Source: an uncultured Oscillospiraceae bacterium
Lineage (GTDB): Bacteria > Bacillota > Clostridia > Oscillospirales > Acutalibacteraceae
Length of the DNA stretch: 64,000 nucleotides
Assembly (NCBI GenBank): GCA_949292425.1
Contig: CASEZK010000039.1
Location: 1-64,000, forward strand
Reading direction: 5' to 3'
A model generated the notes under the pieces. It was not told the DNA's origin and did not search any database. It worked only from the letters and a program-made list of their open reading frames with translations. Shown here one piece after another: positions 5,103 through 40,940 of the stretch; the first letter of the stretch is position 1; the number at the start of each line of letters is the position of its first letter. The position numbers and the translations under genes were made by a program.

Positions 5103-5309
5103 TTATGCTTCTGTTACCAGTTCGTCAGATTCTCTGAAAAGTAAAGAGATACACCATATTGCGGCTAAAGCAACTATTGTATAAACTATACGGCTTCCTA
5201 TTGAAGATTGGCCCGCGAAAATCCAAGAGATACAGTCAAATTGGAAAATACCGATTGAACCCCAGTTTAATCCACCTATTATCAGCAAAATTAACGCTAA
5301 TCTATCCAT
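5103..5309 (-). CDS. DUF378 (YuzA-like) small membrane protein
   Basis: 68 residues with two hydrophobic segments (about 5-24 and 41-61). The DUF378 hallmark LLIIGGLNWGSIG lies in the first helix. The family is widespread in Firmicutes and its function is unknown. It lies alone, with its own upstream AT-rich region and a downstream hairpin, so it is probably monocistronic. The ATG at 5309 is preceded by GAAGGTGAAACA. Confidence 0.85.
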   Translation of the reverse strand: MDRLALILLIIGGLNWGSIGIFQFDCISWIFAGQSSIGSRIVYTIVALAAIWCISLLFRESDELVTEA

Positions 5310-30125: not shown

Positions 30126-30157
30126 ATAGCAAGTTTATTTAAAAAGAAGGAATGTTT

Positions 30158-31654
30158 ATGAGGAAACCTAAAAAAGGTAAAGCTGTAATAACCTGTGTGG
30201 CACTTTTAGTAGCTCTCTGTTTTCACTTATTTGCAAACATCAAAACCACACCGAATTGCTCCGCAGGCGAGATAGATTCAAGTGCTTACTTTTCTTCAGA
30301 CAACTCTAAAATTGAATTGTTACCCGATAATTTAGGTGGTTTTTATATTGTTAGTGCAGACACCGCTAATACAAAATTATCTTACTTTGATGGTAATACC
30401 ATAAGCTCATCTCTTACTTTAGACTTTAAGTATATTTCTGCAGTCTCTGATGGCAATTATATTTATATTTTTCATAGTTTAGATAGGGGAAAAAAAGTTA
30501 AAAAATATAAGTATGAAAATGGTAAGTTTACAGGACCAGAAAGTGAGCTAACTGCAGATGATTGGATAAATTTTTCAGCTGCTAATAATTTCGTATTTTC
30601 TTTTGTTAGTTACAAAAACCAAAAGAAAGATTTGGTGGTATATGACAGAGAAGAAGGAATAAATAAAGTATTTGAAAACTGCAACCAATTTGCCATAAAC
30701 TCCTCCAAAAGCAAATTATATGTTCAAGAAAATGATAATAATTACCTATTAGCTTACAATATAGATGAAGCTGGCGTGTCATCTGAGAGCGAGAATATAG
30801 CTCCCAAAAATGGTAACAAAGATAATTTACCCGATAACCTTATGCATTTTTTAAGCGATGATATAGTGGCAACAAACACAGGGAAATATTTTAAATTGGA
30901 CAGTGAAAATTATACCATAGAGCACATTTTAAGTGTTAATGTTTTAGATTTGAGTGTGGACTTTTGTTCTGCTGTATATAAAGCTGATAGTAAAAATTAC
31001 ATAGCCGCACTGACAAGTAACAACATCGTCACTTTCTACGACATAGATGATAGTCTTACAGCAAAATATAAAGTGGAATTAGACACCCAGGATAAAATCG
31101 TATTTATCTGCACTTCTGGTTCTAAGACGATTTTAGTTTGGAAAAATGATGCCTACCTAAAAGCTAAAATACTAGACAAAAATAATCTAATAGAGATAAA
31201 AAATGATACAGACCCTGAGCCAGGCAATCCTTTGGACTTTGAGCCTGTTGTTAAAGCGTTAAACGATGCATACACTTTGAGTGAAAGTGAGCGCGTATAT
31301 ATTCCATTGTCTGAAACTATCAGCAAAGTAAAGGACAATTTAAATTTAAGTGGTTACAGTATAGAATTTAAAAATTATGTAGGAAAAGCTATCACGAGCG
31401 GGAAGCTTGGTACTGGCAGTGTCGCAATTTTCTCTAAAGATGGCAAAACTGCAGAGTTTATTTTCATAGTAAAAGGCGATATTACAGGTGAAGGTAACGC
31501 TAACAGCCGCGACGTTGATTGTATGTATAATCACATTTTTGGGAAATCTTCACTTAGCGAAATAAATTCAAAAGCTGCAGATATAAACAATGATGGTGTC
31601 GTCGATACTTTAGATTTATTGCTTTTAAGTAAAATGGTTTCCAGCTCATCCTAA
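30158..31654 (+). CDS. Secreted protein with C-terminal type I dockerin
   Basis: About 498 residues. ATG 30158 is preferred (AAGGA with 7-nt spacing) over the ATG six bases earlier. A signal peptide covers about 1-30. The centre (30-370) is Asp/Asn/Lys-rich with repeating short beta-strand patterns (YLVYDREE-type) that could form a propeller; no known domain is recognised. The end (about 440-498) is a dockerin: GDITGEGNANSRDVDCM and ADINNDGVVDTLDLLLLS are the paired calcium-binding repeats. Such proteins attach to cohesins of cellulosomes or related surface complexes. No cohesin gene lies in this window. Confidence 0.8.
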   Translation: MRKPKKGKAVITCVALLVALCFHLFANIKTTPNCSAGEIDSSAYFSSDNSKIELLPDNLGGFYIVSADTANTKLSYFDGNTISSSLTLDFKYISAVSDGNYIYIFHSLDRGKKVKKYKYENGKFTGPESELTADDWINFSAANNFVFSFVSYKNQKKDLVVYDREEGINKVFENCNQFAINSSKSKLYVQENDNNYLLAYNIDEAGVSSESENIAPKNGNKDNLPDNLMHFLSDDIVATNTGKYFKLDSENYTIEHILSVNVLDLSVDFCSAVYKADSKNYIAALTSNNIVTFYDIDDSLTAKYKVELDTQDKIVFICTSGSKTILVWKNDAYLKAKILDKNNLIEIKNDTDPEPGNPLDFEPVVKALNDAYTLSESERVYIPLSETISKVKDNLNLSGYSIEFKNYVGKAITSGKLGTGSVAIFSKDGKTAEFIFIVKGDITGEGNANSRDVDCMYNHIFGKSSLSEINSKAADINNDGVVDTLDLLLLSKMVSSSS

Positions 31655-31684
31655 TTTGAGAAAAAATATAAAGGAGAAATGAAA

Positions 31685-32869
31685 ATGGACTGTTTAATTA
31701 CACTTTACAATGACGAACAAATGTATAATTTAATAGTAATATTTTCATTTATGCCCAAAAAAGTCATCCTGCTTTACGATAAAAATTATACCGATAATAA
31801 AAATATGGAGAATTTAAAAAATGCTTGTAAGTCTAAAATACATAATATAGAATTTGAATGCGTAAATTTTGACAGCTCAAACATAGACAAAGTGGTAAAC
31901 ACTTGTACCTGGATAATCCACAGGAATACAAATTGCTATTTCGATATAACAGGTGCAAGTGAGCTGGGAGTTATTGGGGCATATTTGGCTTGTAAAAAAA
32001 CTTTTACACCCGTATTTAAAATACAACTCCTTGAAAATAAATTGATAAATATTTACGGTTGTCACTCTCTTGAAAAAAATTTTAAATACCCAAAATTGAC
32101 TATAGACACTGTTTTTGCCGCTAGAGGTGCATTTCTTTCTGGAAACAACCATCCCACTCCGCCACGTCATTTATTTAATAGCATATTGAACTTTTGTAAC
32201 GAGGTTTTTAAAGATATAGCTGCATGGAAAGACCTTTGTTATTACTTACAAACAGGAAGGGCAAAGTTTCCTCAAACCGGCAGGCCAAATTTTTTTGAAG
32301 CACCAAAAAGAATTAACATATCTAAAAGTAACGTAACTTTCTCAGGAGAAGCCCTGTTGAGAAAAGCTGAAAAATTAAGCCTTATACATCAATTAAATTT
32401 AAATAACCAAAAAGTATCGTTCTATTTTAAAAACGACACCATAAAAAGATATATGACAGACTTTGGAGTGTGGCTTGAGCTGTACTGTTTTATAAAACTT
32501 GAACAATGCGGTTTGTTTCATGATGTTCGCCTCAGTGTAAAAATAGACTGGAATAAATCTGAAAATAGTTTAATTGAAATCGTCAATGAAATTGACGTTA
32601 CGTTTTTTTATAAAACAAGGCCATGTTTTTTATCGTGCAAGTTATCCGAGCCTTCTTCTGATGCACTGCAAGAGTTAAGTGTATATCCTTTTTATTTCGG
32701 CGGCAAAAACTCAAGGTCCATTCTAACTGTCTTAAGCAATGTAAATAGGGGAAATTCGTACCTTTACAAACGTGCAAAAAGTATGCAAATTTCTATGATA
32801 GATGGCAATGATATAAAAAATAACAAATTTATCGATGCCATAAAAAAAGCTTTGTGTATAGAAGGATAA
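31685..32869 (+). CDS. CARF-nuclease of the Card1/Can2 (DUF1887) family
   Basis: About 394 residues. The N-terminal CARF-like fold shows CLITLYNDEQMYN and the ring-nucleotide motif CYFDITGASELGVIGAYLA (about 85-104). The C-terminal PD-(D/E)XK nuclease shows WLELYCF (Glu), EIVNEIDVTFF (Asp) and CFLSCK (Lys), followed by ALQELSVYPFYFGG. In Card1 these residues cut nucleic acid after cyclic tetra-adenylate binding. The usual E-x-K is S-C-K here, as in some relatives. No cas10, csm, cmr or CRISPR array is in the window. ATG 31685 fits AAGGAG better than ATG 31679. It sits just before tRNA-Leu. Confidence 0.78.
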   Translation: MDCLITLYNDEQMYNLIVIFSFMPKKVILLYDKNYTDNKNMENLKNACKSKIHNIEFECVNFDSSNIDKVVNTCTWIIHRNTNCYFDITGASELGVIGAYLACKKTFTPVFKIQLLENKLINIYGCHSLEKNFKYPKLTIDTVFAARGAFLSGNNHPTPPRHLFNSILNFCNEVFKDIAAWKDLCYYLQTGRAKFPQTGRPNFFEAPKRINISKSNVTFSGEALLRKAEKLSLIHQLNLNNQKVSFYFKNDTIKRYMTDFGVWLELYCFIKLEQCGLFHDVRLSVKIDWNKSENSLIEIVNEIDVTFFYKTRPCFLSCKLSEPSSDALQELSVYPFYFGGKNSRSILTVLSNVNRGNSYLYKRAKSMQISMIDGNDIKNNKFIDAIKKALCIEG

Positions 32870-32939: not shown

Positions 32940-33026
32940 GCCGGTGTGTTGGAATTGGCAGACGAGACGGACTCAAAATCCGTTGGTGGCAACACCGTGT
33001 GGGTTCGAGTCCCACCACCGGTACCA
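32940..33026 (+). tRNA. tRNA-Leu (anticodon CAA)
   Basis: 87 nt with encoded CCA. Acceptor GCCGGTG/CACCGGT, anticodon stem ACGGA/TCCGT with loop CTCAAAA, a long variable arm as in leucine tRNAs, and the T arm GTGGGTTCGAGTCCCAC. Confidence 0.96.
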
Positions 33027-33075
33027 CTGTGGAGTACTATAAGGGGCATGGAATGTTTTTATGGTTCTCCTTTTG

Positions 33076-33113
33076 AAGAGTAGATTGTTTAACAGGCCAT
33101 CTGCTCTTTTTTT
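33076..33113 (+). terminator. Terminator after tRNA-Leu
   Basis: AGAGTAGAT pairs with ATCTGCTCT, followed by seven T. Confidence 0.7.
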
Positions 33114-33178
33114 GTGCGTCCAAAAGATTTTTTGTAACCGTCTTTTTGTGGCCGGGTCAATTTTGGAATCTGCACTTG

Positions 33179-33364
33179 TCATAGCATATTATAATAAATC
33201 TCTATTTTTTGAACTTTTTCTCTGTGATGCACTACGATTTTGTCAATAAACTCATGCAGGATATCTGGTGTTAGTTCCTCTATGCTTGAATATTTTCTCA
33301 CAATTTGCAAGAAACCATCTGAATTCAACTCATGCTCTTTTTCTTCAGCAACTACTTTCTTCAT
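33179..33364 (-). pseudogene. Serine-recombinase C-terminal remnant (DUF4368 type)
   Basis: The 61 residues read GFLQIVRKYSSIEELTPDIL, then HEFIDKIVVHHREKVQKIEIYYNML. This matches the last part of large serine recombinases of mobile elements in Clostridia (ELT..IL..F(I/V)..I.VH......I.IYY). The resolvase catalytic domain is absent and no upstream continuation is visible, so it is a fragment. It lies between tRNA-Leu and the nitrogenase-like operon and marks a former mobile-element boundary. Confidence 0.7.
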
Positions 33365-33510: not shown

Positions 33511-34695
33511 TTAAGGCTTTCCTATCCACGTGCAAAGATAATCTATATGCACCAAAGATTTTTGAACTTTTGATCTACGATAATCCTGTGCAAACTTTCC
33601 ACTGTAGTCTCTTGGGCAATTTGGTTCTTTTACATATATATTTCGTTCATCGTTTTTAAGGTAATTTATCAAATAAGCACTTGCCGTACATCCACCACCA
33701 CATGTTTTTATTTTTTCGCAATCTTTGCAGCCTTCTATGTATTCAGGGTTTTTGTTTCTTCTTCTAAACTCTTTGAAAGGTTCTGACTGTATGATATCTA
33801 AGATATCGTCTTCTAAAAGGTTCCCGGCTTTGTAGTCGTGCAAGTAAACGCAAGGCGAAACTGGTATTTTGCCATCTGGAGTTATAGAGTGTATCCGTAA
33901 TGAAGTTCTTCCACAAGGGCACCTTTTAGACTCCTCACTATTTACCATCGAATTAAGCCGAGGTTCTGTTATATCTAAAGTTTCACATCTGCTCAGCAAG
34001 TAGCTGTAGTTTTCGTAAAAAGCATCCAAATCAACAATTTGGTCAACGTGCTCTTTTTTCACTGGCTTCAACATGTTGAATCTAATATTAGCGCCATATC
34101 TTTTAGCCAAATTTATTAGTTCATCAATCCTGTCTCTTGTAAAGTTCCACTTCATGGCACACATTATTATTGTTCTTTCCAAATTATGTTTCTTTGCTAT
34201 CTCTAAGGACCGAATCGCTAAATCGTACACAGACGCACCTCTGTTTTTATCGTGTTCCTCTTTTATGGGAGAGTCCAAACTCACATCTACGTCATTTAGC
34301 AAATCAAACGCTTCTTTGTCTTCCTCTAGAAGTTTAATGAGCGTGATACCTGCGGTTGTTATGCCTACATTAGCTCCTATAGATTTTAATTTTCTCAATA
34401 TGTACGGCAAAATTGATTTTCCATTAATTCCATTTGTGTACCACGGTTCGTTTCCACCCAGGTTAACGGTTTTTACATTTAGCTTCTCTATTTGGCTAAC
34501 TACTCTGTCTACCATTGCTTCCGATATATCCATACCCCTGTCCCTAACTGTTAAAGAATAGCATTGCTCACAGTTGCATGGACAAGCGTTACCTAAGCTC
34601 CAACCTATGTTGTTGATTTCACAATCGCATTCTTTTAGCTCCGGATGTTTAACTGCTTCCTCAAAGCCTTTTGTAGTAAATATCAAATTAATCAC
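33511..34695 (-). CDS. Radical SAM/SPASM enzyme, last gene of the nitrogenase-like operon
   Basis: 394 residues. The radical SAM cluster is CPCNCEQC (Cys38, 42, 45). VNLGGNEPWY is the position of the usual GGEP. A C-terminal SPASM region has RCPCGRTS, VSPCVYLHDY, GCKDCEKIKTCGGGC and NCPRDY, enough cysteines for two auxiliary [4Fe-4S] clusters. SPASM enzymes usually modify peptides (thioether, epimer or crosslink), but some act on other substrates. The start is probably GTG 34695, 11 bp after the NifK-like stop, with a weak SD. It is not NifB. Its function is unknown; context links it to the nitrogenase-like enzyme. Confidence 0.85.
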   Translation of the reverse strand: MINLIFTTKGFEEAVKHPELKECDCEINNIGWSLGNACPCNCEQCYSLTVRDRGMDISEAMVDRVVSQIEKLNVKTVNLGGNEPWYTNGINGKSILPYILRKLKSIGANVGITTAGITLIKLLEEDKEAFDLLNDVDVSLDSPIKEEHDKNRGASVYDLAIRSLEIAKKHNLERTIIMCAMKWNFTRDRIDELINLAKRYGANIRFNMLKPVKKEHVDQIVDLDAFYENYSYLLSRCETLDITEPRLNSMVNSEESKRCPCGRTSLRIHSITPDGKIPVSPCVYLHDYKAGNLLEDDILDIIQSEPFKEFRRRNKNPEYIEGCKDCEKIKTCGGGCTASAYLINYLKNDERNIYVKEPNCPRDYSGKFAQDYRRSKVQKSLVHIDYLCTWIGKP

Positions 34696-34706
34696 GACCT
34701 TTTCAA

Positions 34707-36038
34707 TTATTTTTTTAAGCTTTCCAGTTTTTTTATTACACTTTCTCTTCTAAGTGCTTTTTTGTTTAATAAATTAAATATTTGTGTGCTCATGTTAAGT
34801 ACTCCGTCAAATCCTAAAGTAGGTGAATTAAAGTTATAATGCTTTTCAAAAAGTGGCAAACTGTACTCCAAAGTTGGAATGTCTAGCTCGTCAAGATCTC
34901 TAGATTCTATTGAACTTCCAATGCAAAAATCTACGTAGTTGTCCCTTAAAGTTTCTTTTATCTGTCCTCTCGTACAAGCTTCAATAACAATAGGCTCATA
35001 CTGCAAAGTACTATTTTTTGCAATTAAGTCTAAGATTTTTTCTTTGCTTTCGTTTAAATTGGAATTATATATTCCTATAAGCACTGGTTCCATCCCAAAC
35101 TCTAAAATCATAGGCAATAAGCTTTTTATAGACTGCCAGTCTGACACTACCGCTACTTTTTTACCTGTCATCTTATGAATAGTATTTTGAACTTTCGGAA
35201 TAACTCTAGAAAGTTCTCTTTTTATGAAAATTTTTGCTGTTTCTTTTCTTTGTGTGGCATTTGCTATACAGTTTATGAAATCTATCGTTTTTTCTAAACC
35301 TATAGGCAAATCACAAAATATATTTTCTTGACCAACTTCATGCTGCAAATATTTTGAGCATTTTTCTCCATAAGGGAAAATAATATTATATTTAGCTTGC
35401 GAGAACTTTTCTAATTCTCCATAAGTATCTCCTGAAAAAAATACAGCGTTTACTTTTAAATCCAACTTGTCCAATATTTTTTTTAATTCCTCAATATTTC
35501 CGTTTTCATCTTCTTCATATCTTGAAAACATATACCCCACTATATTTACTCTGTCTGAGTACTTTTCCTTATGTATGGACAAAGATTTAACGGTTTCTAA
35601 GATTGTATCACTAAAACCTTCGTAAAAGTCACCTCGAAACCCGGGCGAATTAATCGGTATAATTTTTTTACTACTGTTTTTTACTTGCGGAATCACCAAG
35701 TTATAATCTATACCTACAATTTCAGGTGCACAGCTTGTTAATATAAACACAATTTTTCCATCGTAGCGAGTGCAAGTGTCTTCAACAAAATCTACAAGTT
35801 TATTTTCTGTTCCAAATACCACATCCTTATCTATCAAATTAGTCGACAGTGTAGCTTTAAAATTGTTTGAATTATCGTGCATGGACCAAAGGTATAATAT
35901 TCTTCTTTGGCAACCTGATGGAGTGTGCAAAACAATTATGCTATCCTTAATACCGTACGCTGCACAATAGGCTCCAAAGAAATAACAATAACTTACTGCA
36001 CTGTCGACATTATTTTGAAAGGCTAAATCTTGCATCAT
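34707..36038 (-). CDS. Nitrogenase component-1-like protein, K-type subunit
   Basis: About 443 residues. ATG 36038 overlaps the D-like stop as ATGA and follows AAGGAG. Equivalents of all three NifK P-cluster cysteines are seen: SYCYFFGAYC (Cys18), TPSGCQRR (Cys43) and LTSCAPEIVGID (Cys103, compare TTCMAEVIGDD). INSPGFRGDFYEGF matches the NifK HTPSFVGSH...GWDN region. As in NifK, no cofactor-ligating Cys/His pair is evident. It should pair with the D-like subunit as a heterotetramer with P-cluster-type centres. It could be NifN-like, but the partner has cofactor ligands typical of a catalytic D subunit. Confidence 0.85.
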   Translation of the reverse strand: MMQDLAFQNNVDSAVSYCYFFGAYCAAYGIKDSIIVLHTPSGCQRRILYLWSMHDNSNNFKATLSTNLIDKDVVFGTENKLVDFVEDTCTRYDGKIVFILTSCAPEIVGIDYNLVIPQVKNSSKKIIPINSPGFRGDFYEGFSDTILETVKSLSIHKEKYSDRVNIVGYMFSRYEEDENGNIEELKKILDKLDLKVNAVFFSGDTYGELEKFSQAKYNIIFPYGEKCSKYLQHEVGQENIFCDLPIGLEKTIDFINCIANATQRKETAKIFIKRELSRVIPKVQNTIHKMTGKKVAVVSDWQSIKSLLPMILEFGMEPVLIGIYNSNLNESKEKILDLIAKNSTLQYEPIVIEACTRGQIKETLRDNYVDFCIGSSIESRDLDELDIPTLEYSLPLFEKHYNFNSPTLGFDGVLNMSTQIFNLLNKKALRRESVIKKLESLKK

Positions 36039-37375
36039 AGGCAAAACTCCTTATATTTTTTATAAAATGGTTGATTCAATTCTTGCACTAAGTTAGCCGC
36101 AAGCGCTAGAAACCCATAGTAAAAATGGTACGGGTGCTCTACGTCCATAGATTCAGAAAAAGCAAGCCCCATATTATGAATTAGTTTTCTATTTGTATGC
36201 ACATCAAAAACTATATCAACTTCATTCTTCTTTATCACTTCCCAAAATTGCTTGCTGTCGGGGTAGGCTAAAACATCACAATGCAAATTTTCATTCTTTA
36301 TTAAATTTGAAAGTCTCTTAAAAGTCTTTCCGCTAATATTTGTTACCTTATCTCCTATTGTCTCGTGCAGTCTATAAAAGGAAATAACCTTTATATCTAA
36401 CTCCAGCTCAAGCAATGCTTCAATCAAGTCCAACGTGCGGTTAGCTCCTACAGCTACGGCTACTTTTTTGCCATTTAAGAGTCTTTTAAAATAATTCAAT
36501 TTTTTCTCAGTAAATAATCTATATTCATTTAAAATGAGCTTTTTTTCATCTCCCAAGTGAAAGTAATCTACAAGACTTTCAAAGAATAACGTCGTATTTT
36601 TTATTCCTACCGGTATTGGCAACTTTAAATATGGTACATCAAAGTTTTCTTCCATAAATTTAATAGTGCTGTAAGCCGATCCGGGACATCTCACTATATT
36701 TAAACTGGCTCTTGAAGCTTTTTCAATATCATTCAGCCCTAAATTAGATGTAAAAACTCCGTTTAACGTTATCCCTATGCTATTTAAAAGCTTTTCAAGT
36801 TCAAACATATCTCTGCCCGCACGGTAGTCAAACGGCCAACTGTACCCTATGTAATTTACACTGTTTGGAATTTTTTCTTGACTTTTTGTAAAACTTTTAA
36901 CTAATTCTGAAATCACCATATTATGTCCGTCAGACTGTGCCATGCCGGAAATACCTGAAGTATGTAAAACTAAGCACTTTTTTGACATCTTACTCTTTAT
37001 TTTGCTTACAAGTCCGTCAATATCTTCACCTATCAGCTCACTAGTGCAAGTTGTCAATACCACAATTAATGAAATTTTTTCTACATTATTAAGTTCAAAG
37101 AGCAGTTTTTCAAGTTTACTAAGCCCACCGGTTATCACATCCTTTTCGTTCATGTTTGTACAGTAAGTTCTTGCAACACCCCCTACATAGTCAAGTTTAA
37201 ATTCATTGTTGCATCCTTTAGGACCGTGTATCACTATAGCTACGTCATCCTTCATGCACTGAAGAGACCGCCAAGCCCCTCTCATGGAGCAGCCATAATT
37301 AACGTTGCCTGTTCCACAGTAATTTTGTACGCTTACATCGTTTATATTTTCAGAGCTAAAGCACAATCCTTTCAT
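36035..37375 (-). CDS. Nitrogenase component-1-like protein, D-type catalytic subunit
   Basis: About 446 residues; ATG 37375 with GGGGG upstream is preferred over ATG 37387. Compared with Azotobacter NifD: NYGCSMRG (Cys29 for Cys62), HGPKGC (Cys55 for Cys88), LTTCTSELIGEDI (Cys110 for Cys154), LNIVRC (Cys230 for the cofactor ligand Cys275), HPYHFYYGF (His417 for His442) and QSDGHN (Gln147 and His151 for Gln191 and His195). NEKDVITGG matches QEKDIVFGG. These are retained P-cluster and active-site residues, so this is a cofactor-bearing reductase subunit rather than a Bch/Cfb-type homologue. The substrate is unknown. Confidence 0.88.
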   Translation of the reverse strand: MKGLCFSSENINDVSVQNYCGTGNVNYGCSMRGAWRSLQCMKDDVAIVIHGPKGCNNEFKLDYVGGVARTYCTNMNEKDVITGGLSKLEKLLFELNNVEKISLIVVLTTCTSELIGEDIDGLVSKIKSKMSKKCLVLHTSGISGMAQSDGHNMVISELVKSFTKSQEKIPNSVNYIGYSWPFDYRAGRDMFELEKLLNSIGITLNGVFTSNLGLNDIEKASRASLNIVRCPGSAYSTIKFMEENFDVPYLKLPIPVGIKNTTLFFESLVDYFHLGDEKKLILNEYRLFTEKKLNYFKRLLNGKKVAVAVGANRTLDLIEALLELELDIKVISFYRLHETIGDKVTNISGKTFKRLSNLIKNENLHCDVLAYPDSKQFWEVIKKNEVDIVFDVHTNRKLIHNMGLAFSESMDVEHPYHFYYGFLALAANLVQELNQPFYKKYKEFCL

Positions 37376-37377
37376 AT

Positions 37378-38205
37378 TTACCCCCATCCATATTTTTGAT
37401 AAAGTTCATACATCTCGTTATCTGAAAGTGGTACCGGTACACGTGGCTCATCACACTTGTCTATATTATTTGCAAAATTGATAAATAAATTTGATACATC
37501 TGAATTTGGATACATTTCTATTACAGTTTTCTTTGCGATTTCGGCTCTATGAAAGCTATTATCTCTCGGAACAATAAGTGCTACTTTTGTCTCTATTGCT
37601 TTAGCAAATTCTGACACTATTTCTTCCTCATTCGGAATTCCTCTGCAGTTCAATATAAGTCCTTTTAGTGTAACAGAACCGTTTATTGCGTACTTCCTTA
37701 TGCATTTACAAATATTATTAGCTGCAAAAACCGACATGAACTCTCCTGAAGCAACCAGGTAAATTTCTTTTGCGTAGCCTTCTCGTATAGGTACCGCGAA
37801 GCCCCCGCACACCACATCACCTAAGACATCGTAAACTATATAGTCATCATTCCAGTCAAAGGCTCCTAGCTTCTTTAAGGTATCTATACTAAGAATGATG
37901 CCTCTTCCTGCACAGCCAACACCCGGTTCAGGGCCCCCGGATTCTACGCATTTTACTCCAGAAAAACCAACCTTAACAATATCATCTACATTTTCTATTT
38001 CGTTGTGATCTTGCAAGTATTCTAAAACTGAAATTATCTTTTTACCGCCCAACAATAGTTTTACTGAATCTTTTTTTGGGTCACAACCAATCTGCATTAC
38101 TTTTTTCCCAAGTGATGCTAATGCTGCACTTATGTTTGATGACATTGTAGACTTTCCTATGCCACCTTTTCCGTAAATTGCAACTTGTTTAGCCAATTTT
38201 CTCAT
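37378..38205 (-). CDS. NifH-like nitrogenase reductase (Fe protein)
   Basis: 275 residues. Walker [11 protein letters not shown], switch [25 protein letters not shown] (cluster Cys98, with Arg101 where NifH is ADP-ribosylated) and [17 protein letters not shown] (Cys133) are all conserved. The two cysteines bridge a [4Fe-4S] cluster in a homodimer that passes electrons with ATP hydrolysis. The frame allows ATG 38205, but GGGGG is adjacent to it; TTG 38196 ([11 protein letters not shown]) has better spacing. Overlaps the NifB gene and ends just before the D-like start. Confidence 0.93.
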
Positions 38206-38974
38206 CCCCCTTATTTATGTATCCATAGGCATCTGCTCTACACCTAGAGCAGGCTTCCTTTTGCAAAATATAATTTGCAGCTTCCTTTCTGAGTTCGTTT
38301 AATTTTTTAAAATCGACCTTACAGTTGCTAAATCTTCCGGAAGGTATAACCGGTATAATATTCATTATGTCCACATTCAGTCTGTTGCAAAGTTTAGCAA
38401 TCTGTAATATCTGATTATCGTTGACTCCAGGTATATAAACTGTATTTACTTTTAAGTTGATGTGCCTTTTTGCGGCTTTTTTCAGTCCTTTTAACTGCTT
38501 TTCAAGTAAAAGCTCCGCAGCGTCTGCACCAAAATATTTTTTATTCTTATATATAACATAACTATAAATTTTTTGTGAAACCTCTGTGTTGAGCGAATTT
38601 AAAGTTACCGATAAAAAGTTTAAATTTAGCGAAATAAGTTCGTCAATTTTCTCGTCCAACAGAAGCCCATTTGTGCAAAGACAAGTAGTACAATCTTTTA
38701 AAACATTCAAGCATTTGAAAGTTTCCTCGTTGTATAAAGCTTCTCCAGGTCCTGCTATCCCAAAAACGCATCTGTTTTTGTCTATACTTTTTATGTACTC
38801 TATTATTTCGTCAGACTTTAAAACTCTTTTAGTTACGCCGGGTTTGTTTACATGTGCACAAGTGATCTTTTTATCACAAAAATTACAATGTATATTACAC
38901 TCTCGTGCAACCGGCAGGTGCAGTCTTTTTATCTCGTTTATGCAAGTTTCGTTAAAGCATGGATGGTATCGCAT
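38189..38974 (-). CDS. nifB: NifB-type radical SAM cofactor synthase
   Basis: 261 residues with the full set of NifB marks: RYHPCFNE at the start, [13 protein letters not shown] (radical SAM cysteines 26, 30, 33), [68 protein letters not shown] and the terminal [10 protein letters not shown]. NifB inserts carbide and fuses two [4Fe-4S] units into the 8Fe core (NifB-co/L-cluster). It has no NifX fusion. Its start overlaps the methyltransferase stop (TAATG). This is the strongest sign that the locus makes a nitrogenase-type cofactor. Confidence 0.92.
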
Positions 38975-39630
38975 TATTCATCACCTTTCCTCAAATGTAT
39001 GGCATAGTGGAAAAACGTTTTGTCTTCATGAAACTCTTCTATTTGCTTTAATGAAATAATGTGAAATGACTTAAAAAGTTTGTATATATATTCTTCGTCT
39101 ACGAAAAAATGCGGCAATACGCTTCCATCTTCTTCTTTTTTCATCAATGTATTTTCAGCTATTAAAGATCCACTTCCGTCAAGAAAAGATTTATCGTTTT
39201 TCGAAAGCATAGTTATAAAAGCTTCGCCATTCGCTTTTAACACTCTTTTTATTTCGTAAATCGTTCTAATGAGACCATCGTAGTCTGTATGGTAAATTGA
39301 GTTATAGGCAACTACAAAGTCAAAACTTTGCGATGAAAAAGGAAGTCTGTTCATGTTGCCATTTACTAAATCTATTTCTAAATTAAGTTGATCAGCAAAA
39401 CTCTCTATTTTATCTAGTCCTTCCTTCGAAAAGTCAAATGCAGTAACGTCAAAACCATTTTTTGCAAATAACAGAGAATGCCTACCTATACCTGCGCCTA
39501 AGTCCAAAAGTTTTTTGTTTCTTTTTTCAGACCACAAATGCAGATAATAATAAATATCTTCTGATGGTTCGTTCCAATGCGTGCTGGTTATGTTGTTCCA
39601 GTTCCAAGCTTTTTCAATCACAAAAATCAC
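38974..39630 (-). CDS. Class I SAM-dependent methyltransferase
   Basis: 218 residues, Rossmann type. KLLDLGAGIGRHSLLFAK is motif I, TAFDFSKEGLDKI motif II, and FDFVVAYNSIYH motif IV; EIKRVLKANGEAFITML follows. The N-terminus WNNITSTHWNEPSEDI resembles TehB/small-molecule methyltransferases. GTG 39630 overlaps the upstream stop (GTGA), or GTG 39621 with GGAG is used. The substrate is unknown; within this operon it could methylate a product or a peptide. Confidence 0.85.
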   Translation of the reverse strand: MIFVIEKAWNWNNITSTHWNEPSEDIYYYLHLWSEKRNKKLLDLGAGIGRHSLLFAKNGFDVTAFDFSKEGLDKIESFADQLNLEIDLVNGNMNRLPFSSQSFDFVVAYNSIYHTDYDGLIRTIYEIKRVLKANGEAFITMLSKNDKSFLDGSGSLIAENTLMKKEEDGSVLPHFFVDEEYIYKLFKSFHIISLKQIEEFHEDKTFFHYAIHLRKGDE

Positions 39631-40736
39631 TCCGATCCAATTTTAATGTTCTTTTTCAGCTCATTAATTGAAAGATTTGTCGTCTCATGGCCGGCCGAAA
39701 CACCTGCTGCACTGTTATATCCTATAACGCCGGCATAAGCTTTTATCATCTTTTCGTAGTTAAACTCACATTTTTCAAGCTCATCGTACATATCCCACAA
39801 GAATTCCTCTAAAACCTTCTTGGTAAAGTAACAGTTCCTCAGGTCTAAACCTTCTTTATATCTTTTAATGCCATCGAAAAGGCAGCCGCCACCACATATG
39901 CCTATGGCTTCACAGTTTTTGCAATACCTTCTATGTATAGGTGTTCGCTTTACCCATCTGTCGTAATTATAACTTTTGTTGTTAAATGGAGGGTAGTTGA
40001 CACAGTTTGTGGTAGACCCGTCCGGATAAATTAAAATTTGTTCGCCCCCCGCTGTACAATCCATTATTCTAAAAGTTTCAAATATCAAGGGTTTCAGCTT
40101 TCGTGCAATTTGATCTATGTATATTTTTTCTTTTTTCGCGTAATAAAAAATTTTTATCAATTCATCCGTATATTTTTCTATGTCAACTTCAGAATCGTTG
40201 TACTTAGTAAAATGCGGAATATTGTAACCGAAACTGTCCACTTTTAATTTATCTCTTAAATTTTTAGTCATATCGTAGAGGTTTGAAACATTGTAATTAC
40301 CTGCCACTACAGACGCACCTACCGTACAACCTGCTTTTTTTGCGTTGCTATATCCATTCAATATTGCTTCGTAGGCTTCTTCTCCATTTAACAATTTTCT
40401 CATGGAGTTTTTACTTTTGGTGTCTCCATCCAGCGATAAAACTATAAGAACATTTTTTTCTTTCAGTTTTTTAGCTATTCTTTCGTTTATTAAAGAGCCG
40501 TTGGTTTGAATAATAAATTTCGCATCCACATTGTCTAAAAAGTATTCTACTGTTTGCCAATTAGTTAACGGTTCTCCACCAGTAAATAAGATAACGCCAT
40601 TTTTTATCCTGTCGTTATAAAAATCTATAACTTTCCCTGCCATCTCAATGCTCATTTTAGAGCTAGGAACTCTTTTTCTATTTTTATAAACCAAGCAATA
40701 TTCGCATCTAAAATTGCATTCTGTGGAAATTATCAC
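39627..40736 (-). CDS. Radical SAM/SPASM enzyme, first large gene of the nitrogenase-like operon
   Basis: 369 residues. It begins almost directly on the cluster motif ISTECNFRCEYC (Cys7, 11, 14), followed by ILFTGGEPLTNW, IIQTNGSLI and LSLDGD. The C-terminal SPASM region has MDCTAGGEQILIYPDGSTTNC, RRYCKNCEAIGICGGGC and LRNCYF. The GTG start at 40736 has no usable SD. The frame is continuous with the small ORF upstream except for TAA 40748-40746 and three codons, so this may be one protein split by a stop. It is typical of peptide-modifying SPASM enzymes, substrate unknown. Confidence 0.83.
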   Translation of the reverse strand: MIISTECNFRCEYCLVYKNRKRVPSSKMSIEMAGKVIDFYNDRIKNGVILFTGGEPLTNWQTVEYFLDNVDAKFIIQTNGSLINERIAKKLKEKNVLIVLSLDGDTKSKNSMRKLLNGEEAYEAILNGYSNAKKAGCTVGASVVAGNYNVSNLYDMTKNLRDKLKVDSFGYNIPHFTKYNDSEVDIEKYTDELIKIFYYAKKEKIYIDQIARKLKPLIFETFRIMDCTAGGEQILIYPDGSTTNCVNYPPFNNKSYNYDRWVKRTPIHRRYCKNCEAIGICGGGCLFDGIKRYKEGLDLRNCYFTKKVLEEFLWDMYDELEKCEFNYEKMIKAYAGVIGYNSAAGVSAGHETTNLSINELKKNIKIGSE

Positions 40737-40745
40737 CTTTATATT

Positions 40746-40940
40746 TTAAAGCTCAGGCTTTGATTTTTCATTTTTATTTATAATTAGATTAAAGTTTTTT
40801 TCAAGGTCCTCCTCGAAGCTTTCTTTAGTTGTAAAAACTTTTTTAAGGTTATATGGATTAAATAAAATTACCTTATTTCCTTTTTCAAAAGTAAAAATTC
40901 CTTTTTTCTTCAAATTTTCTTTTAAGCTAGTTTCTTCCAT
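40746..40940 (-). CDS. Small ORF: candidate N-terminal cap, partner or peptide substrate of the SPASM enzyme
   Basis: 64 residues from ATG 40940, with a strong SD (AAAGGAG). No cysteine, no signal peptide. GIFTFEKGNKVILFNPYN suggests a beta-hairpin, then a charged helix (TTKESFEEDLEKN). This looks like the N-terminal cap of many SPASM maturases, and it is in frame with the radical SAM gene across a single TAA. Alternatives are a separate recognition protein or a RiPP precursor. It lacks a typical leader/core split, so I favour the cap. Confidence 0.55.
   Translation of the reverse strand: MEETSLKENLKKKGIFTFEKGNKVILFNPYNLKKVFTTKESFEEDLEKNFNLIINKNEKSKPEL

What the first reader, a model, noticed from the sequence alone, without database searches (positions are those of the whole stretch)
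36035..37375. D-like subunit keeps P-cluster and active-site ligands of true nitrogenase
Aligned by eye to Azotobacter NifD, equivalents of Cys62, Cys88, Cys154 (P-cluster), Cys275 and His442 (cofactor ligands), Gln191 and His195 (active site) are all present. Many nitrogenase-like enzymes lose the cofactor ligands. This argues for a complex iron-sulfur cofactor in the active site. Arg96 does not seem conserved, so the pocket differs.
Basis: partly seen in the sequence, partly recalled or inferred. Interest (0 to 1): 0.8.

Follow-up and report, generated by a model that had tools for sequence, protein, structure and literature searches.

The report
Nitrogenase-like enzyme with mixed active site
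A tiny-genome rumen-type bacterium carries a compact nitrogenase-like enzyme whose active site mixes features of nitrogen-fixing nitrogenase and of a sulfur-compound reductase; it very likely holds a large iron-sulfur cofactor but probably does not make its living by fixing nitrogen.

Summary
The D-like ORF is real (36035-37387, minus) and sits in a seven-gene operon: SPASM radical SAM, methyltransferase, NifB, NifH, D, K, SPASM radical SAM. However, His397 falls on the distal cofactor ligand of methylthio-alkane reductase (MarD His429, 'Loop I'). So a complex [Fe8S9C]-type cofactor remains likely, by another route, helped by a NifB, a NifH and all six P-cluster cysteines; the genome shows no NifEN, homocitrate synthase, NifX or ModA. 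The pocket is a mosaic: Nif-like Gln/His side, Mar-like distal histidine, 5 of nitrogenase's 10 invariant residues. The protein is a distinct D lineage, joined neither to NifD or NifE nor to core MarD, found only in two genomes of one genus. AlphaFold models were too poor for an overlay, so the ligand assignment rests on sequence. Substrate unknown. A homocitrate-free, L-cluster-type reductase is the best reading; N2 fixation is unlikely.

The parts
36035..37387 (-). D-like (component 1 alpha-type) subunit, 450 aa
   Evidence: distinct D lineage in tree
37289..37291 (-). Cys33 = Av NifD Cys62 (P-cluster)
37211..37213 (-). Cys59 = Av NifD Cys88 (P-cluster)
37046..37048 (-). Cys114 = Av NifD Cys154 (P-cluster)
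36923..36937 (-). Gln151...His155 = Av NifD Gln191...His195
36686..36688 (-). Cys234 = Av NifD Cys275 = MarD Cys270 (cofactor Fe1 ligand)
   Evidence: MarD numbering from PMC12552129
36197..36199 (-). His397, candidate distal cofactor ligand at the MarD His429 (Loop I) position
36125..36127 (-).
   Evidence: PMC10745740
34707..36044 (-). K-like (beta-type) subunit with P-cluster Cys20/Cys45/Cys105
37378..38205 (-). NifH-type Fe protein, 275 aa, with the conserved Cys-containing motifs
   Evidence: 1cp2, 292 bits
38189..38974 (-). NifB-type radical SAM enzyme without NifX domain, 261 aa
   Evidence: (7bi7, 226 bits)
38974..39630 (-). SAM-dependent methyltransferase (Methyltransf_25/11)
39627..40736 (-). 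Radical SAM/SPASM-type enzyme 1; probable true start at 40940 with an in-frame TAA at 40746-40748
33511..34695 (-). Radical SAM/SPASM enzyme 2

Best explanation
The locus encodes an ATP-dependent two-component reductase of the nitrogenase superfamily that carries a NifB-made, homocitrate-free and Mo-free [Fe8S9C] (L-type) cluster. Inferred working: the NifH-type Fe protein passes electrons to a P-cluster held by three cysteines each of D and K, then to the [Fe8S9C] cluster in D, anchored by Cys234 at one end and most likely by His397 in Loop I at the other, as in methylthio-alkane reductase. Gln151 and His155 stay beside the reactive belt sulfide as in nitrogenase, so binding and proton delivery should be more Nif-like than Mar-like. 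Substrate: unknown; with two SPASM-type radical SAM enzymes and a methyltransferase in the operon and no transporter, I favour reduction of a C=C, C-S or similar bond in a small molecule or peptide during its biosynthesis over N2 fixation. Shown by computation: the genes, the operon, the residues, the lineage and the missing accessory genes. Inferred: the cluster type, His397 as ligand, the electron path and the substrate class.
For: P-cluster cysteines all present: D C33/C59/C114, K C20/C45/C105. Cys275 equivalent C234 conserved. His397: a MarD profile HMM puts it under the MarD ligand His; it lies at Asp+6, the same spacing as in 7/7 MarD-like proteins and in 0/12 NifD/NifE. One of those, L041, is a true MarD (820 bits to 9d9u_A/9fmg_A) whose 'IRH' is Arg428-His429, the ligand seen by cryo-EM (PMC12552129). 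H397 is invariant between window and L033, whereas H418 is not. NifB aligns to the solved NifBs 7bi7/7jma at 226 bits with the NifB motifs. NifH 292 bits to C. pasteurianum Fe protein. No NifEN (only two PF00148 proteins), no NifV or any relative where all 14 controls ring, no NifX, no ModA. Purifying selection: pN 0.14-0.25 against pS 0.73-0.87 across the operon genes measured, K only in its N-terminal part. Foldseek/VIA place even the poor model in the nitrogenase component-1 fold.
Against: No structure: pLDDT at residues 396-421 is under 50, so His397 facing the cavity is not shown. MarD's hallmark Arg428 is Val396 here, and MarD has one more residue in the loop. Only two independent D sequences exist, so 'conserved' is weak. 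The window's radical SAM 1 and the L033 K gene each carry an in-frame stop, which could be decay or assembly error. Absence calls depend on a 97.9%-complete MAG.
Confidence: 0.6

Rival explanations
1. It is a minimal nitrogenase that fixes N2, using an L-cluster or scavenged FeMo-co, with Gln191/His195 kept for that reason.
For: Gln151/His155, Cys234, Ser237, Gly314 kept; NifB, NifH, D and K present; L-cluster-loaded NifB and NifEN are reported to reduce N2 (PMC13245594); one Roseiflexus nitrogenase works without NifEN (PMC11573651, title and abstract).
Against: Lost: Val70, Arg277, Phe381, Gly424, His442 of the ten invariant residues (list in PMC10745740), and Arg96. No homocitrate synthase, NifX or ModA. 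No PII-type gene between H and D, which overlap. AU test rejects the query with NifD (p 0.021). The [Fe8S9C] cluster in Mar does not reduce N2 (PMC12552129, section title).
Confidence: 0.1
2. It is a methylthio-alkane reductase or close functional equivalent (C-S cleavage for sulfur assimilation).
For: BHDK gene set; Loop-I His at the MarD His429 position.
Against: AU test rejects the query with core MarD (p 0.0003). MarD Trp195, Phe199 and Arg428 are Gln, His and Val here (PMC12552129). No sulfur-compound gene among the neighbours read. A relative in the same family has a genuine, separate MarD.
Confidence: 0.15
3. It holds no large cofactor: a [4Fe-4S] reductase like DPOR/CfbD, with NifB present for another reason.
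For: Model too poor to show a cavity. The isethionate reductase IsrD, a nitrogenase-like enzyme with its own radical SAM gene, lacks both cofactor ligands (PMC11423573).
Against: Cys275 equivalent kept, unlike IsrD; NifB-type enzyme in the same operon; all six P-cluster Cys.
Confidence: 0.1
4. The operon is a decaying relic and makes no working enzyme.
For: In-frame TAA in window radical SAM 1 and in-frame TAG in L033 K; truncated recombinase fragment and tRNA-Leu beside it.
Against: The two stops are in different genes; in the genes measured pN is far below saturated pS; frames stay open after the stops.
Confidence: 0.1

Closest known systems
NifD (Mo-nitrogenase alpha subunit, TIGR01282/TIGR01862)
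   Same: Fold, P-cluster Cys, Cys275, Gln191, His195, Ser278, Arg359 and His383 equivalents; best profile hit 170 bits
   Different: Far below the curated cut-offs (170 of 486 and 143 of 654 bits); 5 of 10 invariant residues lost including His442; separate lineage
MarD (methylthio-alkane reductase, PDB 9FMG/9D9U)
   Same: P-cluster Cys, Cys270, Loop-I His429 position, BHDK gene set, no homocitrate
   Different: Arg428, Trp195 and Phe199 not shared; about 20% identity; clade rejected; extra SPASM radical SAM and methyltransferase genes
NifE (cofactor scaffold)
   Same: P-cluster-site Cys, Cys275 column, Gly277-Ser278; profile 151 bits
   Different: NifE here has Lys/Tyr at 191/195 and keeps the His442-column His and Gly424; the query has neither; AU p 0.023
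NifB (7BI7, 7JMA, 6Y1X)
   Same: The operon's NifB-like protein aligns over its length with the archaeal NifBs (226 bits)
   Different: Scores 207 bits against a curated NifB cut-off of 344, in part because it lacks the C-terminal NifX domain

Membership tests
Nitrogenase component 1 superfamily (PF00148) | Profile match over the whole domain | tested here: met
   D 218.6 bits, K 244.2 bits; cut-off 28.6
Nitrogenase (NifD/VnfD/AnfD) | Score above the curated NifD/N2-ase alpha cut-offs | tested here: not met
   143 of 653.6 and 170 of 486 bits
Nitrogenase (NifD/VnfD/AnfD) | Cofactor ligands Cys275 and His442 | tested here: not met
   Cys met (C234), His442 not (gap or Met414)
Nitrogenase (NifD/VnfD/AnfD) | Ten invariant active-site residues (PMC10745740) | tested here: not met
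   5 of 10; seven NifDs score 10 of 10
Nitrogenase (NifD/VnfD/AnfD) | Homocitrate supply and NifEN scaffold in the genome | tested here: not met
   genome 97.9% complete
Methylthio-alkane reductase (MarD) | Arg428-His429 hallmark in Loop I | tested here: not met
   His yes (H397, Asp+6), Arg no (V396)
Methylthio-alkane reductase (MarD) | Groups with MarD in a tree | tested here: not met
   AU p 0.0003 for query + core MarD
Methylthio-alkane reductase (MarD) | C-S cleavage activity | not testable with these tools
   needs purified enzyme
NifE scaffold | Groups with NifE; NifE pocket residues | tested here: not met
   AU p 0.023; residues differ
P-cluster-containing component 1 | Three Cys in D and three in K | tested here: met
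[Fe8S9C]-cluster enzyme | Cofactor seen by spectroscopy or structure | not testable with these tools
   AlphaFold models too poor; inferred only
NifB | NifB motifs around the radical SAM and K-cluster sites | tested here: met
   [24 protein letters not shown], CxxCRADA in alignment with solved NifBs
NifB | Score above the curated NifB cut-off | tested here: not met
   207 of 343.7 bits; the query lacks the C-terminal domain in that 441-position model

The most novel reading that the evidence does not exclude
A third, deep-branching class of [Fe8S9C]-cluster reductase whose D subunit combines nitrogenase's Gln191/His195 catalytic side with methylthio-alkane reductase's Loop-I histidine anchor, working with dedicated SPASM radical SAM enzymes and a methyltransferase on an unknown substrate.
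Probability: 0.45. Interest if true: 0.8.

Novelty: new variant of a known kind. Interest (0 to 1): 0.62.

Why it matters
The MarD study could reconstruct the ancestral P-cluster and Cys ligands but not the distal histidine, because nitrogenases and Mar use different loops (PMC12552129). A further D lineage with the Mar-type histidine position and the Nif-type Gln/His pair bears directly on which arrangement is older and which residues are needed for N2 against other substrates. It also offers a NifB-H-D-K set with no NifEN, homocitrate or Mo genes detected. If real, it adds a nitrogenase-type metallocluster enzyme to reduced-genome gut bacteria.

Tried and rejected
Structural overlay: AlphaFold2 with 4 rows (pLDDT 55.5) and 2 rows (43.8); loops 396-421 under pLDDT 50, so no distance was measured. 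Deeper alignment for folding: three scans of viral contigs found no relative; the one genome-contig scan found one. Foldseek and VIA place the fold but cannot tell NifD, NifK, NifE and MarD apart at this quality. Broader homologue search: about 1,485 genome searches up to phylum level with D gave only the congener; the next-best profile hit (G1238) is a NifE-like protein of an ordinary nif operon. SPASM enzymes searched in 250 family genomes each: congener only, so no operon context hints at substrate. RiPP idea: no precursor-like small ORF was recognised beside the operon, so not claimed. My dN/dS for the C-terminal part of K was out of frame and is discarded (K_C). Considered and dropped: H418 as ligand (Gln in L033). 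AU p values are uncorrected for the five tests made; the unstarred sister position to NifD/NifE (76/68) is not claimed.

Full report
WHAT IS THERE. The ORF is intact on the minus strand, 36035-37387, 450 aa. It lies in a tight, mostly overlapping operon reading 40736 to 33511: SPASM-type radical SAM, methyltransferase, NifB-like, NifH-like, D, K, SPASM radical SAM. D and K are the only PF00148 proteins of a 1.02-Mb, 97.9%-complete genome.

CHECK OF THE NAMED RESIDUES. I compared D with Av NifD and more than 60 component-1 ORFs, then with curated sets of NifD, NifE and MarD/Group-IV D proteins. In phmmer, MAFFT and profile-HMM alignments, Av Cys62, Cys88, Cys154, Gln191, His195 and Cys275 fall on C33, C59, C114, Q151, H155 and C234. 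Av His442 falls on a gap or Met414. Clostridial NifDs show the difference cleanly, with His442 in 'LHSYDYSGPYAG' and Ala at 451. His451 is not a resting-state ligand. It takes part in a histidine quartet seen when the cofactor is disturbed, and mutating it lowers cofactor accumulation (PMC10745740; PMC11612016). The Av NifD reference letters used in the scripts were typed in from my own knowledge; they agree with the chain printed by the PDB search over residues 61-475, and the named residues land on their published numbers.

A BETTER CANDIDATE LIGAND. MarD anchors its [Fe8S9C] cluster with Cys270 and His429. That His lies in Loop I and was missed by earlier sequence comparison, because it is not where nitrogenases carry theirs (PMC12552129). 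L041 is a true MarD (820 bits to 9d9u_A) and fixes the register: its 'IRH' is Arg428-His429. A MarD profile aligns the query 'DIVFDVHTN' with 'DlllsRhag', H397 under the ligand. The His is at Asp+6 in the query, in L033 and in all seven MarD-like proteins, and absent from all twelve NifD/NifE. H397 is identical in the window and L033; H418 is not. This is an alignment argument, not a structural one.

MOSAIC POCKET. Of the ten alpha-subunit residues called strictly conserved in nitrogenases (PMC10745740), the query keeps five: Gln191, His195, Cys275, Ser278 and Gly356. It has Ser, Gly, Arg and Val for Val70, Arg277, Phe381 and Gly424, and no His442. NifDs score 10, NifEs 6, MarD-like proteins 2. 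Compared with MarD it lacks Trp195, Phe199 and Arg428. The Gln/His pair is not unique to NifD: a NifE-like protein in L070 has it too.

COFACTOR SUPPLY. The NifB-like protein aligns over 254 residues with solved NifBs (226 bits) and has the NifB motifs. The Fe protein is close to NifH. K has the other three P-cluster cysteines. The genome shows no NifV relative (all 14 control genomes ring), no NifX and no ModA. Together this points to NifB-co/L-cluster as the final cofactor, as in Mar. It remains an inference.

LINEAGE. In a careful tree the query pair falls outside NifD+NifE (100/98) and outside the MarD/Group-IV clade (96/92), inside D-type proteins (100/99). AU tests reject grouping with NifD (0.021), NifE (0.023) and core MarD (0.0003). 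They do not reject grouping with the whole Group-IV set (0.10) or a position outside both (0.40). Exact placement is open. VnfD and AnfD were not in the tree; they score lower than NifD against the query.

DISTRIBUTION AND CONSTRAINT. D-guided searches of about 1,485 genomes in the phylum, and a scan of GTDB contigs, found the operon only in the congener, a roe-deer rumen MAG. Between the two, nonsynonymous change is low and synonymous change saturated in the genes measured, K only in its N-terminal part: long-term purifying selection. Each genome nevertheless has one in-frame stop in a different operon gene.

FUNCTION. Most likely an ATP-driven reductase with P-cluster and L-type cluster, substrate unknown. 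I put N2 fixation at about 0.1 and Mar-type C-S cleavage at 0.15. The SPASM enzymes and methyltransferase suggest a tailoring or biosynthetic pathway, but nothing tested here shows it.

Noticed in passing
window 40746-40748 (minus): In-frame TAA interrupts radical SAM 1, whose ATG with a good ribosome-binding site is at 40940; the L033 homologue reads Ser there.
   Followed up: partly
L033 about 5244-5246: In-frame TAG interrupts the K gene of the roe-deer rumen MAG where the window has Tyr; frame open on both sides.
   Followed up: partly
window 32940-33364: tRNA-Leu(CAA) next to a truncated recombinase C-terminus (DUF4368) at the operon's 3' end; possible trace of an integrative element. GC content does not differ.
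   Followed up: partly
L033 7673-8085: Repeated reading frames that look like short zinc-ribbon or insertion-sequence pieces beside the operon end; not matched by Pfam.
   Followed up: no
window 31679-32869 (plus): Card1-like CARF nuclease beside the operon; no CRISPR array looked for.
   Followed up: no
window 30152-31654 (plus): Protein with a dockerin type I domain, suggesting a cellulosome-like attachment.
   Followed up: no
L041 (G473): A same-family genome carries a true MarD, 820 bits to the solved R. rubrum enzyme, so Mar-type sulfur chemistry probably occurs in this clostridial family.
   Followed up: partly
L070 8676-9989 (G1238): NifE-like protein in an ordinary nif operon that has the NifD-type Gln/His pair.
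   Followed up: no
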